In this document: positions 29,702 to 45,061 of the stretch, one piece after another
How the letters are laid out: each line of letters opens with the position of its first letter
How positions within the stretch are numbered: position 1 is the first letter of the stretch
NCBI RefSeq assembly: GCF_000219625.1
Contig: NC_018218.1
Coordinates: 2,108,001-2,172,000, forward strand
DNA: 64,000 nucleotides
Reading direction: 5' to 3'
From: Zymoseptoria tritici IPO323
Taxonomy: Eukaryota > Ascomycota > Dothideomycetes > Mycosphaerellales > Mycosphaerellaceae
Notes under the pieces: model-generated
What the model saw: only the letters and a program-made list of their open reading frames with translations
What the model was told of the DNA's origin: nothing
Databases searched by the model: none
Translations under genes and position numbers: made by a program

Positions 29702-32700
29702 TCACCCACGTGTGTTCGCCGCGCGCTCATCAGCCAGTCTCCTCTTCTCCGTAAACAGCGCATGCAGCGCCCCCTCGTCCATCACCCACCTTGCCAACTC
29801 CAACGCGCCTTCCATCCACTTGGTCGCCTCTGTATGATTCTCCACTGCAATCAAGTCTACCGCATGATTGAATCCTGTAGTAGCGAGCCATTGCAACTCC
29901 GCATCTGGGTAGAGATCTTGCGAGGGTTGATCGGGAGAACGAGCCTTCTCCGCGATAGTCGCAGCTTGCAGTAGGAGCTTGTAGCTGAAGTCGTCTTGTA
30001 TGTGATCGAGACAGAGGGTGAAAGCGAAGCGCAGCCAGCGGGCGATCTTTACAATATCGTACTGAGCTTTCCAGCAATGGTCGACCGCGCGCTGGAGGAC
30101 ATCGCGGATCAGAGTGTCAGTCTCGGAGCCGAGGCTGTGAGTATCGAGCTGATCATGGATGATGATGACGATGTCTGCAAGGGTGTCCCAATGCTCGTCG
30201 ATGTTGGAGTTGAGACAGGCTTGCAAGGCGACCTCGAGGTTGTGCCATTGGCGGAGTCTGAGGATGCATTCAAGCTCAAATTTGAGCACGGAGAAGTGGC
30301 GTTGCTCGTGTTGCATTGCTGTGTCTCCGTGCATTGTGCGTCTAAGCTTCGCATGGAGCTGTTTGAAGGTCTTGATATGCTTCTGGGCATGCAGGTAGCC
30401 TTGGAGTGTGTATTCGTCGTCCTCACTACCTGAGCGTCCAAGGGCGACCAAAGCTGTCGTTGCCAGATAGGCACAGAGCATCCGGCGGTTTTCGATGTCA
30501 CTCTCAAGGTCTGCAGCATCTTCCATGGGACAGTTGTCCATGAAGGAGGTGCATGTCTCCAACAGGCGGACCGTCGACTCCGGTCTAATGTCTGTGCAGA
30601 GACGAACGCCGAGATTGTACGCATTCTTACTCCACCACTGGACTTCCGTTCTCCAGGAATCCTTGGAGAGCTTTCGTAGCTCGTCCACTGAGCGAAAAGC
30701 GTTCTCAAAGATTTCAATCACTTGTAGGGCCACTTCATCCAGGTTCTGGCCCGGTTCGTCAAGCTCTGTCATAAGCAATCTTGCCGTGCAGCGCAGCAAA
30801 GCAGTGAGATTCACGCCTTGAGGTCGCTTTCCAACGATTGCCTGCAGAGCGGCGACACCCATATGTCGCATCGAGGACTTCTGAGCTTCAATCACGCATG
30901 CGTACAGGTATGTGGGATCATTGCCTGCCTTTCTTGCCACGACTTTCAGGCTGTCCATCGCTAGTTCGTCGTCTTGTGACTGAAGTGCGAGTTTGAAGGC
31001 CAGATACCGAGTGATGCTTTCATCCTGCGTAGACTTGGGCATTTGAAAGAACGCTTCGCGAGCGGCGGAGAAATCTTCATGGTCCATTGCATGGCGCATC
31101 AATTTCCTGTCAAGAAGCAGTGAGTATAGCAACATTGTACAGGGTTCTGATCAGGTACGTACCTGCCGACTCGAGCCTTGTTCAAGTGACCAGCGTTGTC
31201 GAATACAGGATGTCTAAGCAAATGTAGCCATTCTCCGGTGTTAGGTCCTGTGGCAGCTTGCCAGATCAAAGTCTGCGCAGCGTGCGTGGCTTTTCCCGTG
31301 AAACAAAGTGCGGGAATCTCACTCTTAATGCGGTCGAGCAGTTCTCGTATCCCTACAACCGAAATCTCTTGTGGCGTCGAAGCTGGTGATTTTGCGCACA
31401 AAATGTATGCAACCGTTGCCTTTTCGAGCCAGCACTGTATCGTACTGTCCTTTTCGTGCGTATCTCGCAGCTCTGGGAGCAGTCTTGTGTGGATGAGTTC
31501 TGCCAGCGCGGTCAACGAGGATGACGAGGCCACCTTCGACGCCTGTCGCAACACCTTCATCGCTCTAGATCACTCAGACTCAGCAAGATTGCACTAAATG
31601 GTGGAGCGGGCTTGCTCACGTTTTGAAAGAACTCTCCGTTAGCACAGTCATTTTGACGATGCGAAGAAGACTTTGGAGTATCAGCTCTTCATCGATTTGC
31701 CGTTGTGCAGCTAGGATCCTGAAACGCGTGGCCTGGACTGCGACACGATTGTAGAGTCCGTGGGTGGCTTCCAGTTGCTCGAGGATTTCCCAGGCCCGTT
31801 GGTGGGAGACATCCCGCTCATCCGAGACTAGCAGTTCGACTGTATATCGTCAGCAAACCGTGACAGGAGCCAGTCGAGGCGGGCTTACCGAATGCAACTC
31901 CAGTACAGAGTCGCAACTCCTCAACGTCCTGAGTGACTGATTGAGCGTCACATCTGTCCAACGTGGCGATGGCACGTTCAAACCACTTCACGGCGATGTC
32001 CGACTGTCCGGTCTTCGCGAGAGACCGCGCAACCTCGTACATCAGATCAGCCTGTTTCACGGTCATATCTGCTTCGGCGCAGTCTGCTCGTTGTGAGATC
32101 TTGGAGTAGAAATGATCTGCCAGGTCTAGGCGATCAGACTTCCAAGAATGCAGCAATCGGAGGAGGTAGTACTCGTTGACAAGAGCACCGAAGTCATCGT
32201 GCGAGCACTCCTGATCTTTCGTGTGGTTGTTTGCAATTCGGATCAAAGGAACGTCTTCTGCAGACTCAACAGGTATAAAGTCAGAGCATCTTTGGAGAGA
32301 TATGGAAGCTAGCTCGAGCTCCTCTCGATCCAAGCACAATCGAGAAGCTCGTAAAGCCACTTTCATGATACGAATCTTCTGTCCTGGATCATCTGTGTTG
32401 TGGCGGCTTGAAACGGCATGGGCGGCTGCAAGAAGTAGAAGCGCAAACACTCGGGTGACGACACCAGAGTGCACCTCGTTGACCACCTTGATCCGCGGGT
32501 CGCGAGGGCCATCCTCGTGGAGAAGATGTGCAGAGTAGTTCCACAGATCGATGCCTACCAAGTCGAAATCTCTACACTTGTCTGCGATGGCTGCAGACTT
32601 CAGATGCGGTAGGGACTGCTTGACATATGATTCGATTTGCGCGAACAAGGCGGTCGGAAGGGTCGAACGGTCTTGCAGGATTGTACGTGCTGTATTCGCG

Positions 32701-32823
32701 CAGTCTGTGATGAACCATCGGGTGAGTCGGGTGCGTCCATGCGGGGGAAGCGCATTGCCAACCTAGGACGGCTTGGACGCGCGGGTCCGCAAGATCTTTC
32801 TTCATCAACTTTGACGTCGCCAT
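29702..32823 (-). CDS. SPO22: Meiosis protein SPO22/ZIP4 homologue, 5 exons
   Basis: Model is complement(join(29702..31106,31163..31564,31620..31839,31889..32704,32763..32823)), 967 aa. Four 49-58 nt introns each keep frame; for example HLNKARVGR joins KLMRHAMDHEDFSAAR. Exon 1 (MATSKLMKKDLADPRVQAVL) and its GTTGGC donor are the weakest part. The protein is made of TPR-like helical pairs, e.g. ADLMYEVARSLAKTGQSDIA and AVKWFERAIATLDRC, with the SPO22 core around FFQMPKSTQDESITRYLAFK. The family coordinates crossover formation with the synaptonemal complex/ZMM group in meiosis. It marks the left edge of the accessory island. Confidence 0.85.
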
Positions 32824-35945: not shown

Positions 35946-37604
35946 GGCGAGGGGACCGCCAGACCATCCTTGCGGGGATGTGTAATGACACAGCAGTTTG
36001 TGCTTGATGCTTGATGCTTGATGAAGATTTCCTGGTCGTATCAGCGAGCATACTGTTTTAGCGAGGAGCTGGAGGCGTTATAGCTGATTTTACAGCTCGA
36101 TACCAATGTTGATTTTGATAGCTTGAATCCCTCGGATATGTGTACTATATACCTGAATGGATGGACACCGAGTAATTGTTCCATGATCTCCCTTGTGCCT
36201 ACTCCCACTGCTTGCAGATCAAACACCAAAGCTTGCAATTCTGCAAACCTCATGACCTGGATTATCGCCCTACGATTCCTTAATATGATCGCTGTCCAGC
36301 TCAACTCTCTCTGCTAGCGCCTCCATCGAGCGGAGACCATCGAGACCCCTGTCGCGACTCGCGGAAGAAATGGACAATTTGCCAAGTGCCGGCGTGACGT
36401 TTACGACGGCCTGCGGCACTTGTTAGCGTCGTCCATTCCTCGTCCTTCTTGGTCTTGCTCTTGGACGATTACGACTCCGATCGAGTGATGTCCCGACACG
36501 CTCAGCATGATGTTCAAATCCCTTTCCGGCACCAACGATGGATGTCGCACGCCTCTGCGCGGCCTGGCTGAACGTGCCGTCAGACGCCGGCCGCTTCAGT
36601 GACCGAGCGGTCCGGCAACATGTTCCGGATCTGGAGTGCTTGAACACATCTGTGGGTCGAGTGATCCGTTTGGCTCCTGCAAAACCGGAGTGGGAAGGGA
36701 CGCGCCGGCATGACACCAAAATTTGCGCCGTGAACCCGACCGAGTCCCACTGCAGTGCTCCGCGAGGACGGTGACCCGCACGCGGATCAACTTCGCAGCA
36801 CCGGTAGCAACTGTGACCAGCTGTACACGCCGGCGCTTGACTGGAGAGATGATCCTCGTCATCAATGATGTGGTCTGCTGGATTATGTGTCAAGCTCCTC
36901 TCGATCATATCGAGCAAAACGCGGGTGATCTCCAAGAAAGAGATTCTGGAGCACCTGGAACGAAAAGAAACAAGGCGGTCATCAACGTGGAAATCGTCTG
37001 GAGCGCGCATGTCATGGCCTGGTTAATTAATGTCAAACCTTACTACTCCTCGCCAAAACACAACGTTGTTCGCAGCAGGTCTGATCACAAGAAGTGGCTT
37101 GGCCATGGCTTCTTACCATTACACTGTCAGTGTCAATAGCAGGAAACACCGCATGCTTATCAACCCGCAAGGACACGACATTATTGGCAAATCCGGTAGA
37201 GTCTCGACACTCGTCTTACTCATCGTATCTGCATCACACCGGGCAGACCCCACTCGCATGCAGCACAATTGCAAAAACAGCTTGATTCGAATGACTTCAA
37301 AATCGACCCATACATACTCGCTCTGCCGAGCCAAAGGCTATGGTGGCAGGATCAAAGGAAACCTCATTTACCATCCTCCAACTGCAAAGCATGCCGACTC
37401 ACGGCTCATCGCAGGACCAGAGAAAAGTGCCTACGAACGTGAGGAACCCCTTCTTCATTCCAGAGTAACAGGAGTGAAGTCCAGAGTAACAGGAGTGAAG
37501 TAGATGTCGTGTGCTGGCGATATTTGTGAGTCCGTGTTGGCCGACATCATTCATCGAGCTCCACTGTCTCACCTTTCCGAGTCGACCTCACCATGGTTTA
37601 TAGC
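35946..37604. other. Gene-poor stretch
   Basis: About 1.66 kb without a supported gene. A perfect 21-bp direct duplication lies at 37460-37480 and 37481-37501 (unit begins CCAGAGTAACAGG). A tandem TTGATGC triplet lies at 36004-36021. ORFs near 36423-37139 show no family features. Confidence 0.5.
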
Positions 37605-38331
37605 CTACTTGTCGGCTTTTTCGGCTTCAGCAAGAGCATCGGCGAAGGGGTCCTTCTCCTCCTTCTCGTCGTCCTCTTTGATCCACAGAGTGTTGCCATC
37701 TCCACCCCCTTGGCAAGGTCAGACGGGGTCACATTCTGGACCAGGTCTGCAGAGCAAAGACTTACGCTTGTGGACGCCTTCTCCTTCTGCTTCGGCAAGA
37801 GCATCGGCGAAGGGGTCCTCCTCCTCCTTCTCGTCATCCTCTTTGATCCACAGAGTGTTGCCATCTCCACCCCCTTGGCAAGGTCAGACGGAGTCACATT
37901 CTGGAGCAGGTCTGCAGAGCAAAGACTTACGCTTGCGGACGCCTTCTCCTTCTGCTTCGGCAAGAGCATCGGCGAAAGGGTCCTCCTCCTCCTTCTCATC
38001 ATCCTCTTTGATCCACAGAGTGTTGCCATCTCCGCCCCCTTGGCAAGGTCAGAACGGAGTTACATCCTGGACGAGGTCTGCAAAAGCAAGAACTTACGTT
38101 TGTAGACTCCGTCTCTTTTCGCGTCGGTAAGAGCAGCGGCAAAGTCGTTGTTCCAAATGATGGTTCCTGTCGAAGTAAGCACAAAGCCAAATCCTGGTTC
38201 GTGCAAACAAGGTACTGACGCTTCCCGACTTGAGCAGGTGCAGCAATGTCCTCGACGCTGCTGACCGGGACAGCACAAGTCAACGTGCCCATGGTAGCTG
38301 CGACGAGCCCAATCACATCTGTGAAATGCAT
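37605..38331 (-). CDS. Secreted Kex2-processed repeat precursor, probable fungal RiPP precursor
   Basis: Model is complement(join(37605..37708,37766..37873,37931..38038,38098..38166,38220..38331)), 166 aa. Exon 1 gives a signal peptide (MHFTDVIGLVAATMGTLTCA) and a pro-segment ending Lys-Arg. Every later exon is one repeat. The first is divergent (TIIWNNDFAAALTDAKRDGV then YKR). Two near-identical 36-residue repeats follow, starting GGDGNTLWIKEDD, running through EDPFADALAEAEGEGV and ending R/H-K-R. A last shortened copy ends EKADK. Each intron interrupts the Arg codon of the Lys-Arg site in the same phase (C|GG or C|GA). Introns 37709-37765 and 37874-37930 are both 57 nt and differ at only two positions, so exon plus intron duplicated together. 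Signal peptide, dibasic sites and acidic FADALAEA spacers match dikaritin/epichloecyclin-type RiPP precursors. The core peptide, perhaps the NTLWI part, is inferred. Confidence 0.85.
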
Positions 38332-39685
38332 GGCTTCAAGAAATGTTGGGGCGATCGGTCGATGTAGAAGTTTGGAGAATGTGTGTCCGGGAGTGAAGTA
38401 TGGTTTGCTTCCTCGTTGAAAGATGACGGACGACTGGAATGAGTTATACACGTATGTCCACCCAGGTTGGCGTCATCTCTGGAGCTATGAGCCTTGTTCT
38501 TCATGCAACGCCGAACGCAGCTGGAGCTCTGGCCCGTGGCCGGAGCTCGCTTTGCAGTCGCCCTTGAGCTTTTACCCCTGCCTGTGACGAGTACTATTCC
38601 AGCAGGGCGAGAATCCGGACCTTCGATATACTGCAAAACCCCCAGCGAAGTCTGACTGGCGATGAGCTCCCTCAGCATTTCGTCCTCCTTCTGCCTCCTC
38701 ATCGTCCGAAAAATTCCTTTGCACGAATCGTCGGTGACTGCGCAAAGTAGCCTGTTGGGATCTAGAACGGGCCCTGGATACTCTCCGAGCTCTTATCCTT
38801 ACCTGTATCCCTACAGCAGCTCTTGACAGCGAGCTTCCTCAACAACTCCGCTAACCTCTTCTCATCAACAGGTCGTCAAATTTCCCTGGCAAGGACTGTC
38901 GGTGGACATACAAGGTGAGAATTTAGAGCAGAGCGACCCTGGACAGGTTCACCGGTCGAGCTCTGGTTCCTCTCTAGATCCCTACAACAGCTCTCGATGA
39001 CGGAATTGGCAGTATGGCAATTCAGTGGCGTGGCGATGGCTGACTTACTTGCAGACTATTGCACGCTCAGGAAACTGCACTCAGGTGAATTGCGCATCAA
39101 CAGCGCACAGCTTCGAGTGAAGTCTTCGTTGGAGACAGAATTTTCAGCAGCTTCATGTCTGTCGGCATGACTTGTCGGACCGGGTAGCTGTATTCAAGCT
39201 TGCTGACAGTGATGCCAGATCAAAGCTCCCCAGTCAACAAGCTTCCTCTCTTCCGAAAGATCAAGTGACTTCTCTCAGGTTGCGTCAGAGGCAAGGGCAA
39301 AACAGCTACGTCCGGTATGCTTTAATAGCGCTTACGGTCGAAAACTGTGCAGGAATCGGCAGTTCCTTCGATGTTACATTGGCTCGTCAACGCTCCATGG
39401 GACGGTTGCTACTTCTCACATTCGTGACAACTCTCTGTGGCTACCGCACCATCGCACAATCTTTCTTCCCTCTCTTGTTGCGGAATCCATGAGCAAGTCT
39501 GCCTGCTGGGGTCTTGGTCCGTGAACGCAAGGCAAGAATTGAGATTCAACTCCGAACTCAACATCTTCACTTCACAGGACGTCATCGACACAGTTGCAAG
39601 TTAAATTTAGGTGGGAGCTTTTCGACACCATTCCTGTGTGTAGTCCGCAGTGTGCCGAAGTGTCGCGACTCATTGCAACTACACC
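38332..39685. other. Shared upstream region of RiPP precursor and UstYa gene, with degenerate repeats
   Basis: This lies between the two divergent cluster genes, so regulatory sites for both are expected here. Within about 38560-39010 at least two, possibly three, diverged copies of a segment of roughly 150 bp can be aligned by eye. One shared string is ATCCCTACA(G/A)CAGCTCT near 38807 and 38977. On the minus strand they give related peptides such as SCCRD followed by SSES and QG. No intact gene is found. Confidence 0.4.
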
Positions 39686-40851
39686 ATGGAGCAATACAAA
39701 GAAATCTCCTCGTCCGACTCTGGAGATGAACTTCTGGCATCTTTCCACGAGCGACGACGCCAGCGGAAATACAGCTTCTCTTCAATGTTTTTCATCGGGA
39801 CACTCGCTGGGAGCTTCTGTTTCAACATGATCCTGTTGTTTCTGCTCTGGCGAGCAACAGAGCACAGCTACTCCGGACCGTCAGCGCGCCGTCTGGCAGA
39901 AGAATTCAACGGCCTGGTTCCCAAAGGTGCGTGTCTGCTCGAGCATGTCAGTGATCCCAAGGATTGACGCTTCCAACTGCAGTACCTCTGAAGACCGTGG
40001 TGTTCAACCAAGACCCGAACTTTGTCCCATATGACCGAAACATGACCTACTTGGAAAAGGATCGCTTGGTTTCTACAAATTGGAAGCAGGCGTTCATGCC
40101 TCGTACGTTTGTCCTTCCGAAATGGCAAAAAACTTGAGCGTTGACATGATTCGTAGATGGCAGAGGCTTCATCACGGTCGACCATCCTGAAAATTACATC
40201 TTGACGACTCCCCTCACCACACCCAACGGCAGCACTGTCAACATGGTAAGGGAATGGAGGGTGGAGTATTGACGTGGTCCGAAATTGTCTCGCCGTCCTG
40301 ACCTTTGTCCATTCCAAATTGTCCGCGACATCCGCTGATCTTGAATCCTTTGCTTTCCAGTTCGGAATTGCAGCGTTCCATCAAGTACACTGCTTGGTGG
40401 GTCAGGCCCATGCTCCATTTCCGGCACTGTGATCGATGACAAGCTTACCCTTTCATGTCCGCTCCAGAAACTCATCTTCCGCGCTTATCTGGCGTATAGC
40501 CATGGTCATGGACATGTTCTTCCTGAAGGACTGACGGGTGAGCACGTGTACCACTGCTTTGACTATCTTCGACAATCTCTCATGTAAGTAAGCAAGCAAG
40601 AAGGGCATAGAGCATGTCTCGAAGCCTTCCGTCCTCATCAAAGCAAGATGCCTGCTGATTTCTATACTTTGCTTTGAAGGTGCGCTGGAGACACGGCGCT
40701 TGAAGGCGCTGACCCGGCAAGCAATGGTACGACCGGGACGCATGGATTGGGCGTCACTCATGTCTGTAAGGATTGGGACGCACTGATGGAGATGGCGGTG
40801 GATATGGCCGAACCGCTGGATGAGCTTATCAATAAGCTGGAGCCGGTGTGA
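39686..40851 (+). CDS. UstYa-family (DUF3328) oxidase, 6 exons
   Basis: Model is join(39686..39926,39983..40102,40157..40245,40361..40396,40468..40583,40680..40851), 257 aa, the usual size for the family. All joins are in frame and rebuild DUF3328 sequence. There is a short cytosolic N-terminus, one membrane segment (about residues 35-57, FFIGTLAGSFCFNMILLFLL), a mid-region VPLKTVVFNQDPNFVPYD, and the two hallmark motifs: FHQVHCL (HxxHC) and EHVYHCFDYLRQSLMCAGDT (HxxHC with CxD). UstYa/UstYb-type proteins carry out oxidative cyclisation of RiPP cores in ustiloxin, phomopsin and asperipin pathways. It is divergently placed 1.35 kb from the repeat precursor, which supports a joint role. Donors GTGGGT (40397) and GTGCGT (39927) are the least canonical sites. 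Confidence 0.88.
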
Positions 40852-43134: not shown

Positions 43135-45061
43135 CTAGATCGCCACATTGAACGGGATAACATCCGGACCCAGAATCTGCCAAAGAGGACGGCATACCTT
43201 GACTGAGCCCATCAGAATCAAAAGCTCGCCTACTGACAAGGGCACTCATCGACTTCAGAAACGCCTCATTGGCCGCTCGAACAGCCGTATTGCTCCTCCG
43301 CAACAGCTCTTCGCCTTCGAACATGTGCAGCAATGTCCGGTTTGTGCCGACGAACTTGGGGCGTAAACATCGAGCGTATAGGTCGATCGTAGCCAGCGCT
43401 GCGTCGACTTTTGGTAGGTAAGGGACTACGTCGTAAACTCCCTTTTGCTCGGGAACGGGCTGCCAAAGGGCGCTAGTGTGGAATTGAAACACGCCCGAGC
43501 CGGTTAGGAGATCATTGGTGTTGAGCGTGTGGTGGGCGACGGAGACGATGAACCCGATGTGTGCCATCAGATCAGCGAGGTCCGAGACGTTTCGTAGGGT
43601 AGACGGGGTTGGAAAGTCGATGACTTGAGCCGCGATTGCTTCGGTCATCCATGCCTGGAGCTCGGGGTCGTCGTCGAGAGCGTCAGAATCAGCCGGATCG
43701 TAGTACGATTCGCAGTATGTGCCTGTAAACGCTCGGATAGCGTCGTAGACTAGTGCGGCGTCTTCGAAGAAGGGATATTGCTTCAGCGACGGACCTGGAC
43801 TGTCGATCAGGCCTCGACGCCTGAGGTTGGCATAAAAGTAGTTGGCCTGCACGGCCCCGGAGAAACCATTGAAGTACGTCGTGTTTGCGTAGATCTCAGC
43901 GGCCTTGGCGGACAGGCCAAACCAGCTGTCGATAGCCTCACCCGGAGCGAGCAAGGCATCGTAGCCGAGAGGGCGGGGACCATAGGTTGCGTACAACACT
44001 GTTGGGGATTGATTAGCTAATGGAGGAACATGCCCTGAAGATGATAGACGTACCTCTGTTCGAAAGTCCGGACAAGGGGTGTTGTTCACTAAGCTTCCGC
44101 CGTGCAGCGAGACCGATGGCTTCGGCCACGTAGTGAGTCCGGGCGAAATGATCAAACTGACTCATAAAGAGGTCGTTGACATTGAACATCATTTTCGCCA
44201 GAAGTCAGTCGTTTAGAGTGTCGGCCGGCGTATGAATCAGATTGCTTCCAATATTGGTCCGGATGGCGAGGGGCAGGATGTCGCCTGTAGCGGAGCAGAT
44301 GTAGAAGAGGGCGTCACAGTTTGCAGAATAATGGTCCCTCCTGGGCAGATCAGTCTGGTCCCGGTAAGTGACGTAGAAGAGGCGTCCAGATTGCAGTACT
44401 TAACCTGTCGTCTGGTTTGTAAAACCGATCGCAATGGTGTCTGAGACTTCGAAAGGGACTGCATCGCCATCGGCTGCGCTGAGTCTTCGAAGTGCCCATG
44501 GGTTGAGTGACAGTCGTTCCATTGAAAAGAGGAGATCTTGCGTGTAGTTGGTGAGAATCCTGCATGGGGCCTATACCATGCGAGCTCAACATCCACTGGT
44601 GGTCGTATAACTTGGCGTAGTCATCGAGAGTCCTGAGGTCGTTGTACTTTATCCGAACGGCGTCAGCCATTCGTCTAGGGGAAAGGCTCTAGTGCGGTGG
44701 TGAGACGATTCTTACCTGAGCCAAGGAGGCGATGGCTTCCTTCCTATCCACTTCCTCGTATTGCCTTCGGCTGTCGACTACCGCAACAATGAGCGCCATT
44801 TCGGCATCGTTTTTCGCCTCGCCCAGTGGTCCAGCCGGGCTATATAGCCCGACAACACCACTCAATGCTGGAAACCATCCGCCGAACTTGAAGCCCCACC
44901 GCTCTTAGCGTTGAGTCACCATCATGAGTGTTTGGAGGGGAGTACGGCAGTGCCGCTGAAGATGTGTCCACATTGCGTTGAGCCATGTGAGTCGTGGGAA
45001 AGGCATTGACTGTCCGGAGAAGTAGAGCGACCATCGAAAGCAATCGGAGACATGTCTGCAT
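43135..45061 (-). pseudogene. Secreted lipoxygenase, degraded by nonsense and frameshift mutations
   Basis: The pieces read in lipoxygenase order on the minus strand. A signal-peptide start at 45061 (MQTCLRLLSMVALLLRTVNA) is followed by LRTLDDYAKLYDHQW (about 44620), [20 protein letters not shown] in another frame, and SGRLFYVTYRD with DHYSANCDALFYI. Next come LAKMMFNVNDLFMSQFDHF and, after an intron (43999-44053), YGPRPLGY, DSWFGLSAKAAEIY, FIVSVAHHTLNTND (a metal-ligand region) and DGLSQGMP. The C-terminus PLWQILGPDVIPFNVAI, ending in the expected Ile, is reached only by shifting frame near 43189. In-frame stops lie at 44400-44402 (TAA where CAA is expected) and 44205-44207 (TGA where TGG is expected). 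At least two further frame breaks lie upstream. Fungal secreted lipoxygenases oxygenate polyunsaturated fatty acids. Confidence 0.8.

What the first reader, a model, noticed from the sequence alone, without database searches (positions are those of the whole stretch)
37605..38331. RiPP-like precursor in which every Lys-Arg-bounded repeat is its own exon
Splicing by eye gives a 166-aa protein: signal peptide, pro-segment ending Lys-Arg, one divergent repeat, two near-identical 36-residue repeats and a shortened last copy. Introns split the Arg codon of each Lys-Arg in the same phase. The last two introns (57 nt) differ at only two positions, so a 165-bp exon-plus-intron unit duplicated. Because intron phase equals processing-site phase, gain or loss of whole units keeps both reading frame and protease sites, a neat way to evolve peptide copy number. 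The repeats have Trp (NTLWI) and no Tyr, unlike the usual Tyr-bearing dikaritin cores, so the product may be a new class.
Basis: partly seen in the sequence, partly recalled or inferred. Interest (0 to 1): 0.92.

Follow-up and report, generated by a model that had tools for sequence, protein, structure and literature searches.

The report
Wheat-pathogen peptide precursor, one exon per repeat
In what appears to be the wheat fungus Zymoseptoria tritici, a gene for a secreted precursor of several small peptides has each peptide repeat on its own exon and sits beside a gene for a peptide-modifying enzyme, so it probably makes a modified small peptide by a known type of route, built with an unusual gene layout.

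Summary
On the minus strand at 38331-37605 five exons encode a 166-aa precursor; all four introns (53/59/57/57 nt) are phase 1 and split the Arg codon of a Lys-Arg. A protein annotated in Z. tritici strain 3D7 uses the same four introns and is reproduced letter for letter from this DNA, but with a different 3' end.

A six-exon UstYa (DUF3328) gene with both HXXHC motifs starts 1,354 bp away, divergently transcribed (39686-40851; PF11807 E=3.5e-24 after splicing). In 2 of 9 other UstYa neighbourhoods examined in this genome a Lys-Arg repeat precursor also lies head-to-head with a UstYa match, but with repeats not split by introns. The locus is best read as a minimal dikaritin-type RiPP gene pair with an exon-per-repeat precursor.

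'New class because Trp and no Tyr' is weak: in a published survey about a third of repeat sequences with a DUF3328 gene nearby lack Tyr. Frame-keeping is not special either; the intronless arrays keep frame too. Two protein searches found no other relative. Expression, processing and product are untested. New variant of a known kind.

The parts
38220..38331 (-). exon 1: start codon, N-terminal hydrophobic signal-like segment (by eye), pro-segment ending Lys + first base of Arg
   Evidence: identical N-terminus in P0001
38167..38219 (-). intron 1 (53 nt, GTCAGT...CAG, phase 1)
38098..38166 (-). exon 2: divergent repeat TIIWNNDFAAALTDAKRDGVYKR
   Evidence: also in P0001
38039..38097 (-). intron 2 (59 nt, GTAAGT...CTGAC...AAG, phase 1)
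   Evidence: homologous to introns 3 and 4
37931..38038 (-). exon 3: 36-residue repeat GGDGNTLWIKEDDEKEEEDPFADALAEAEGEGVRKR
37874..37930 (-). intron 3 (57 nt, phase 1)
37766..37873 (-). exon 4: 36-residue repeat, one residue different from exon 3 (R to H)
37709..37765 (-). intron 4 (57 nt, 2 differences from intron 3, phase 1)
   Evidence: the only other copies found in the genome are introns 2 and 3
37605..37708 (-). exon 5: last repeat, shortened, with stop (the 3D7 model splices most of it out)
38332..39685 (.). 1,354-bp interval between the two divergent start codons, likely shared control region
   Evidence: length; function inferred
39686..40851 (+). UstYa/DUF3328 gene, six exons (39686-39926, 39983-40102, 40157-40245, 40361-40396, 40468-40583, 40680-40851), 257 aa, hydrophobic membrane-like segment (by eye), motifs HQVHC and HVYHC
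   Evidence: splicing by eye; PF11807 86.3 bits, E 3.5e-24

Best explanation
The locus is a minimal dikaritin-type (UstYa/DUF3328) RiPP gene pair of Z. tritici. The precursor is spliced from five exons, enters the secretory pathway, and is cut at Lys-Arg by the fungus's kexin into a pro-piece and about four peptides built round a T-[LI]-[LI]-W core. The divergently transcribed, membrane-anchored UstYa copper enzyme then oxidatively modifies the core, probably cross-linking or hydroxylating at or near the Trp-Ile. The array grew by tandem duplication of a whole exon-plus-intron unit, which is why the repeat boundaries are introns inside Arg codons. Shown: gene anatomy, the duplication, the UstYa gene model with its two HXXHC motifs, one PF01483 (kexin-type) match in the genome. 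Inferred: signal peptide function, cleavage, modification, the identity of the core, and that the two genes work together.
For: Five-exon structure and 165-bp unit; a model in another strain with the same four introns. UstYa gene 1,354 bp away with both HXXHC motifs; 0.32% of the genome lies that close to a UstYa match listed (a lower bound, since that search misses genes). Two further KR-repeat arrays in the same genome, with putative starts at C3:1704614 and C6:722592, each head-to-head with a UstYa match about 1.6 and 1.1 kb away. One PF01483 match. Between exons 3 and 5, 6 of 7 codon differences in the homologous 89 nt are synonymous in the spliced frame, as expected of conserved peptides. 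Intron copies were found nowhere else, so tandem duplication.
Against: I had no transcript or peptide data, and could not see how the 3D7 gene model was made: the passages read (PMC5765654) describe RNA-seq intron hints for isolates 1A5, 1E4 and 3D1. The synonymous pattern fits the antisense open frame as well. No tyrosinase, methyltransferase, P450, peptidase or second UstYa was found in six-frame Pfam scans of 32.7-50.9 kb, unlike ustiloxin; such scans see short exons poorly. No relative besides P0001, so conservation of the pair could not be tested. In 7 of 9 other UstYa neighbourhoods examined, no repeat precursor was recognised, so UstYa genes often lie without one. The 36-residue acidic repeat is long for a dikaritin core.
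Confidence: 0.72

Rival explanations
1. A Kex2-processed repeat protein that releases plain linear peptides (signal, effector-like or surface-active peptides such as those of Ustilago maydis Rep1), with the UstYa gene adjacent by coincidence or serving another substrate.
For: Most published KEPs (about 78%) have no DUF3328 gene nearby (PMC7329392 passages); Rep1 shows linear Kex2 peptides in another plant pathogen, Hum3 and Rsp1 have putative Kex2 sites (PMC4617103 passages); UstYa matches without a recognised precursor are common here (7 of 9 neighbourhoods); the long acidic repeat is unlike a compact core.
Against: Divergent UstYa gene 1,354 bp away, a roughly 0.3% chance position, and a similar head-to-head arrangement at two other arrays.
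Confidence: 0.19
2. The real gene is the uninterrupted 208-aa ORF on the plus strand (37504-38130), and the minus-strand introns are an illusion of a 165-bp coding repeat.
For: The plus ORF is open over all repeats, and the codon differences are as synonymous in it as in the minus frame.
Against: 264 candidates, none at E up to 1 among 5.8 billion proteins, whereas the minus-strand spliced protein is annotated in strain 3D7; by eye no signal-like start, while the minus strand has one, five KR sites, and in introns 2-4 GTAAGT donors and CTGAC branch-like sites in register.
Confidence: 0.04
3. The near-identical introns were inserted as mobile introner-like elements (recalled as described in Dothideomycetes) at each Lys-Arg, rather than copied with the exons.
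For: Near-identical short introns in a Dothideomycete.
Against: Introns 2 and 4 (with a few flanking bases) used as queries match only introns 2, 3 and 4 in the genome (3 of 3 places in each search); the neighbouring exons are equally similar; no special RNA structure (z from -1.9 to 0.8 for four introns).
Confidence: 0.03
4. An alpha-type mating pheromone precursor.
For: The general plan (signal, pro-segment, KR-bounded repeats) is shared (PMC9233826 passages).
Against: No pheromone family among the 7 Pfam rows listed at E up to 10; in the published survey, with three exceptions, pheromone-type precursors had no DUF3328 gene nearby (PMC7329392 passages).
Confidence: 0.02

Closest known systems
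Dikaritin RiPPs (ustiloxin, phomopsin, asperipin-2a, victorin)
   Same: signal-like N-terminus, multiple KR-bounded repeats, UstYa/DUF3328 gene with two HXXHC motifs beside the precursor
   Different: each repeat on its own exon; no Tyr in the long repeats; only one UstYa gene and no tyrosinase, methyltransferase or peptidase found; long acidic repeat
Kex2-processed repeat proteins (KEPs) of fungi
   Same: at least three repeats separated by Kex2 sites, the minimum used in one survey (PMC6339444 passages)
   Different: word searches of the two surveys' main texts (PMC6339444, PMC7329392) found no 'intron', 'exon' or 'splic'; their supplements were not seen
Xenopus laevis caerulein and magainin genes
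   Same: tandemly repeated peptide-encoding exons with near-zero divergence, peptides cut at basic sites (PMC3731216 passages)
   Different: animal genes, no UstYa modification known to me; analogy only, sequences not compared
The arrays at C3 (putative start 1704614) and C6 (putative start 722592) of the same genome
   Same: KR-bounded repeats head-to-head with a UstYa match, about 1.6 and 1.1 kb from the putative start
   Different: repeats uninterrupted (units of 78 and 45 bp), Tyr present

Membership tests
KEP (Kex2-processed repeat protein) | three or more similar repeats bounded by Kex2 sites | tested here: met
   exons 3, 4, 5 plus divergent exon 2; KR at each internal boundary
KEP (Kex2-processed repeat protein) | N-terminal ER signal peptide | tested here: inconclusive
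   hydrophobic N-terminus by inspection only; no signal predictor was run
Dikaritin RiPP | class-defining DUF3328/UstYa protein with two HXXHC motifs (definition from PMC12048977 passages) | tested here: met
   PF11807 E 3.5e-24; HQVHC in exon 4, HVYHC in exon 5
Dikaritin RiPP | repeat precursor close to the DUF3328 gene | tested here: met
   1,354 bp, divergent
Dikaritin RiPP | tyrosinase, methyltransferase, multiple DUF3328 proteins, transporter or peptidase (older five-gene definition) | tested here: not met
   none found in six-frame Pfam scans of 32.7-50.9 kb; not required by the later definition; short exons could hide one
Dikaritin RiPP | cyclised peptide product | not testable with these tools
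   needs mass spectrometry
Alpha-mating pheromone precursor | MF_alpha-type domain | tested here: not met
   not among the 7 Pfam rows at E up to 10
Introner-like elements | near-identical intron copies in unrelated genes | tested here: not met
   copies found only within this gene

The most novel reading that the evidence does not exclude
The exon-per-repeat layout is used, not just inherited: alternative splicing sets how many and which peptides are made (skipping exon 2, 3 or 4 keeps frame and KR sites; retaining intron 2, 3 or 4 ends the protein 11-14 residues after a Lys-Arg), and the UstYa enzyme cross-links through Trp to give a macrocycle of a new type.
Probability: 0.1. Interest if true: 0.75.

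Novelty: new variant of a known kind. Interest (0 to 1): 0.5.

Why it matters
It adds a likely RiPP gene pair to a major wheat pathogen and shows a repeat-peptide precursor whose unit of duplication is an exon with its intron. The same genome carries uninterrupted repeat arrays beside UstYa matches, so the effect of the layout on copy number, splicing and peptide output can be compared directly. It also shows that a six-frame UstYa search missed a gene with short exons, so such pairs may be undercounted.

Tried and rejected
The whole-genome six-frame search with PF11807 listed 61 places but not the UstYa gene next door; I first took this as evidence against a RiPP cluster. Reading the neighbouring ORFs by eye showed an HVYHCFDYLRQ exon, and splicing overturned that. 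The 61 places are thus a lower bound. A Pfam scan of six frames of a 4-kb stretch did pick up that exon.

Protein searches for relatives found only P0001; the first scored only the 8000 candidates sharing most words, the second had 12 candidates. The plus-strand ORF found nothing. The two weak own-genome matches at E about 0.34 (L014, L015) were looked at in a few frames and dropped: nothing like a KR repeat in what was printed. The pattern AARCGTAAGT (KR codons running into a GTAAGT donor) occurs 140 times in the genome, fewer than its reversed control (219), so it is not enriched; among the 100 places listed the only same-strand places within 500 bp of each other are this gene's three, and 40 places were not shown. 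AAGCGTRAGT: 143 places, 100 shown, control 190; again the only such group is this gene's (two places). Rfam (gathering threshold) and tRNA scans of the window were empty. No solved structure matched the UstYa protein at E up to 1 and no NCBIfam family did at E up to 0.001 (a library for bacteria and archaea). The KR scan also flagged pairs on C9 and on C12 (493-513 kb stretch); I dropped them because their frames hold stops or are DNA duplications off frame. L023 and L025, two 3-kb loci at other UstYa matches, gave no array. Searches for a precedent of introns at Kex2 sites in fungi (and 39 for Cin1) showed none in the listings and passages that I read. The original gigA paper is not among those I could find or read, so whether gigA has introns between repeats was not checked. 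Intron RNA folding gave no clear signal.

Full report
WHERE. The window is contig C1, 2,108,001-2,172,000, of a genome of 39,686,251 bases in 21 contigs. The only protein relative found is from Zymoseptoria tritici ST99CH_3D7, and its letters can be read from the window exactly.

THE OBSERVATION. On the minus strand, exons 38331-38220, 38166-38098, 38038-37931, 37873-37766 and 37708-37605 join to 501 nt coding for 166 residues and a stop. The four introns each leave one base of an Arg codon on the upstream exon; the donors of introns 2-4 are GTAAGT, directly after a Lys codon and C. Introns 3 and 4 differ at 2 of 57 positions, exons 3 and 4 at 4 of 108. The array is the strongest of 5 tandem-repeat rows of the window: period 165, 3.2 copies. 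Four of the five KR sites are intron-split; DAKR inside exon 2 is not.

A MODEL FROM ANOTHER STRAIN. P0001, annotated in strain 3D7, is reproduced letter for letter from this window with the same introns 1-4, then two further introns (37686-37587 and 37572-37514) that remove most of the last repeat and lead to a different tail. How the 3D7 model was made I could not see: the passages read of the pangenome paper (PMC5765654) describe BRAKER with RNA-seq intron hints for isolates 1A5, 1E4 and 3D1, and splicing evidence in general terms for the assembled genomes. The two ends of the first extra intron (GTGGAT, GAG) are weak, so I prefer the simple last exon, without proof. The 3D7 DNA itself was not available, so copy number in that strain is known only from this protein.

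HOW THE ARRAY AROSE. Introns 2, 3 and 4 are mutually homologous (50 of 59, 50 of 59 and 55 of 57 aligned positions identical; 0 of 1000 shuffles reach the scores); intron 1 is weakly similar to the others (3, 1 and 9 of 1000). Searches of the whole genome with intron 4 and with intron 2 each find three places, all in this gene, which speaks against mobile introns. The protein search of the genome gave five strong matches, all at this locus, and two weak ones at E about 0.34, so the gene appears single-copy. In the homologous 89 nt of exons 3 and 5, 6 of 7 codon differences are synonymous, but the antisense open frame shares the same wobble positions and scores the same, so this shows constraint without choosing the strand. 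The antisense ORF has no relative at E up to 1 in the protein collection.

THE MISSED NEIGHBOUR. The genome-wide UstYa search did not list a gene here, yet an ORF at 40345-40584 matches PF11807 at E 8.9e-4. Splicing six exons by eye from 39686 to 40851 gives a 257-aa protein with a hydrophobic membrane-like segment and the motifs HQVHC and HVYHC; it matches UstYa over 24-238 with 86.3 bits, E 3.5e-24, cut-off 25. [quoted passage not shown] passages of PMC12435403 show that this motif pair binds two coppers in a relative that hydroxylates a C-H bond. The start codons of the two divergent genes are 1,354 bp apart; 0.32% of the genome lies that close to a UstYa match (61 matches merged to 39 loci; a lower bound since the search misses genes).

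CONTROLS IN THE SAME GENOME. In 2 of 9 my scan found KR-bounded repeat arrays: C3, putative start 1704614, four 26-residue units such as GEWDYEPTPHYYPPAADSANIPVEKR; and C6, putative signal-like start 722592, seven 15-residue units such as DPEAQRGGIMDYIKR. In both, a UstYa match lies head-to-head (1702438-1702998 on minus; 723662-724189 on plus); whether other genes lie between was not checked. In both, the repeats run on without introns. The C6 start lies in another frame than its repeats, so an intron before the array is likely; I did not splice it. The other 7 of 9 gave no array that I accepted; rows flagged on C9 and C12 held stops or were off-frame DNA duplications. So among the three arrays seen, the intron at each repeat is peculiar to this one.

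MECHANISM. Most likely the precursor is secreted, cut by kexin (one PF01483 match, on C5), and the released repeats, which share T-[LI]-[LI]-W, are oxidised by the UstYa enzyme. Which residues are modified is unknown. The acidic stretch may be a spacer or recognition segment. Skipping exon 2, 3 or 4 (69, 108, 108 nt) would keep frame and leave 3 or 4 KR sites. Retention of intron 2, 3 or 4 keeps the KR, because CGT is still Arg, and meets a stop 11, 14 and 14 residues later; retention of intron 1 (53 nt) shifts the frame. Whether any of this happens is unknown.

NEIGHBOURHOOD. Six-frame Pfam scans of 32.7-50.9 kb at E up to 0.01 found besides UstYa only lipoxygenase exons and one short match below its cut-off (DUF7782, 25.8 of 27 bits, on the minus strand in the acidic last repeat, by position). 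A SPO22-like ORF lies beyond, at 31818-32762. No tyrosinase, methyltransferase, P450 or peptidase was seen; short exons could hide one, as they hid UstYa.

AGAINST THE NEW-CLASS CLAIM. In the survey of 7,878 KEPs, 22.3% have a DUF3328 gene within 15 genes, and of their repeat sequences 65.6% contain Tyr (PMC7329392 passages). Lack of Tyr is thus common. The review passages (PMC9233826) describe victorin as cross-linked through Phe and Leu.

PRIOR ART. Tandemly repeated peptide-coding exons are published for Xenopus laevis caerulein and magainin genes (PMC3731216 passages). Word searches of the main texts of two fungal KEP surveys found no intron, exon or splicing, and the paper searches showed no fungal precedent in the listings and passages that I read. 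Subscription papers are mostly not held, so I do not claim that none exists.

VERDICT. The most novel step, use of splicing or a new Trp chemistry, is open; its splicing half could be tested with existing RNA data.

Noticed in passing
39686-40851 (+): Six-exon UstYa gene not listed by the genome-wide PF11807 search, probably because its exons are short; UstYa counts from that search are lower bounds.
   Followed up: yes
L029 (C3, from 1704614 upward) and L045 (C6, from 722592 downward): Two further KR-bounded repeat arrays, each head-to-head with a UstYa match, with uninterrupted repeats.
   Followed up: partly
about 43400-44200 (-): Lipoxygenase exons (PF00305) near the pair; a signal-like start at about 45.0 kb (by eye) may belong to them. 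No evidence that the gene belongs to the pair.
   Followed up: no
37459-37500: Two perfect 21-bp copies; the 3D7 gene model reads through them at its end (FTPVTLDFTPVTLE).
   Followed up: partly
37504-38130 (+): 208-aa antisense ORF open across the whole repeat array, with no relative found.
   Followed up: yes
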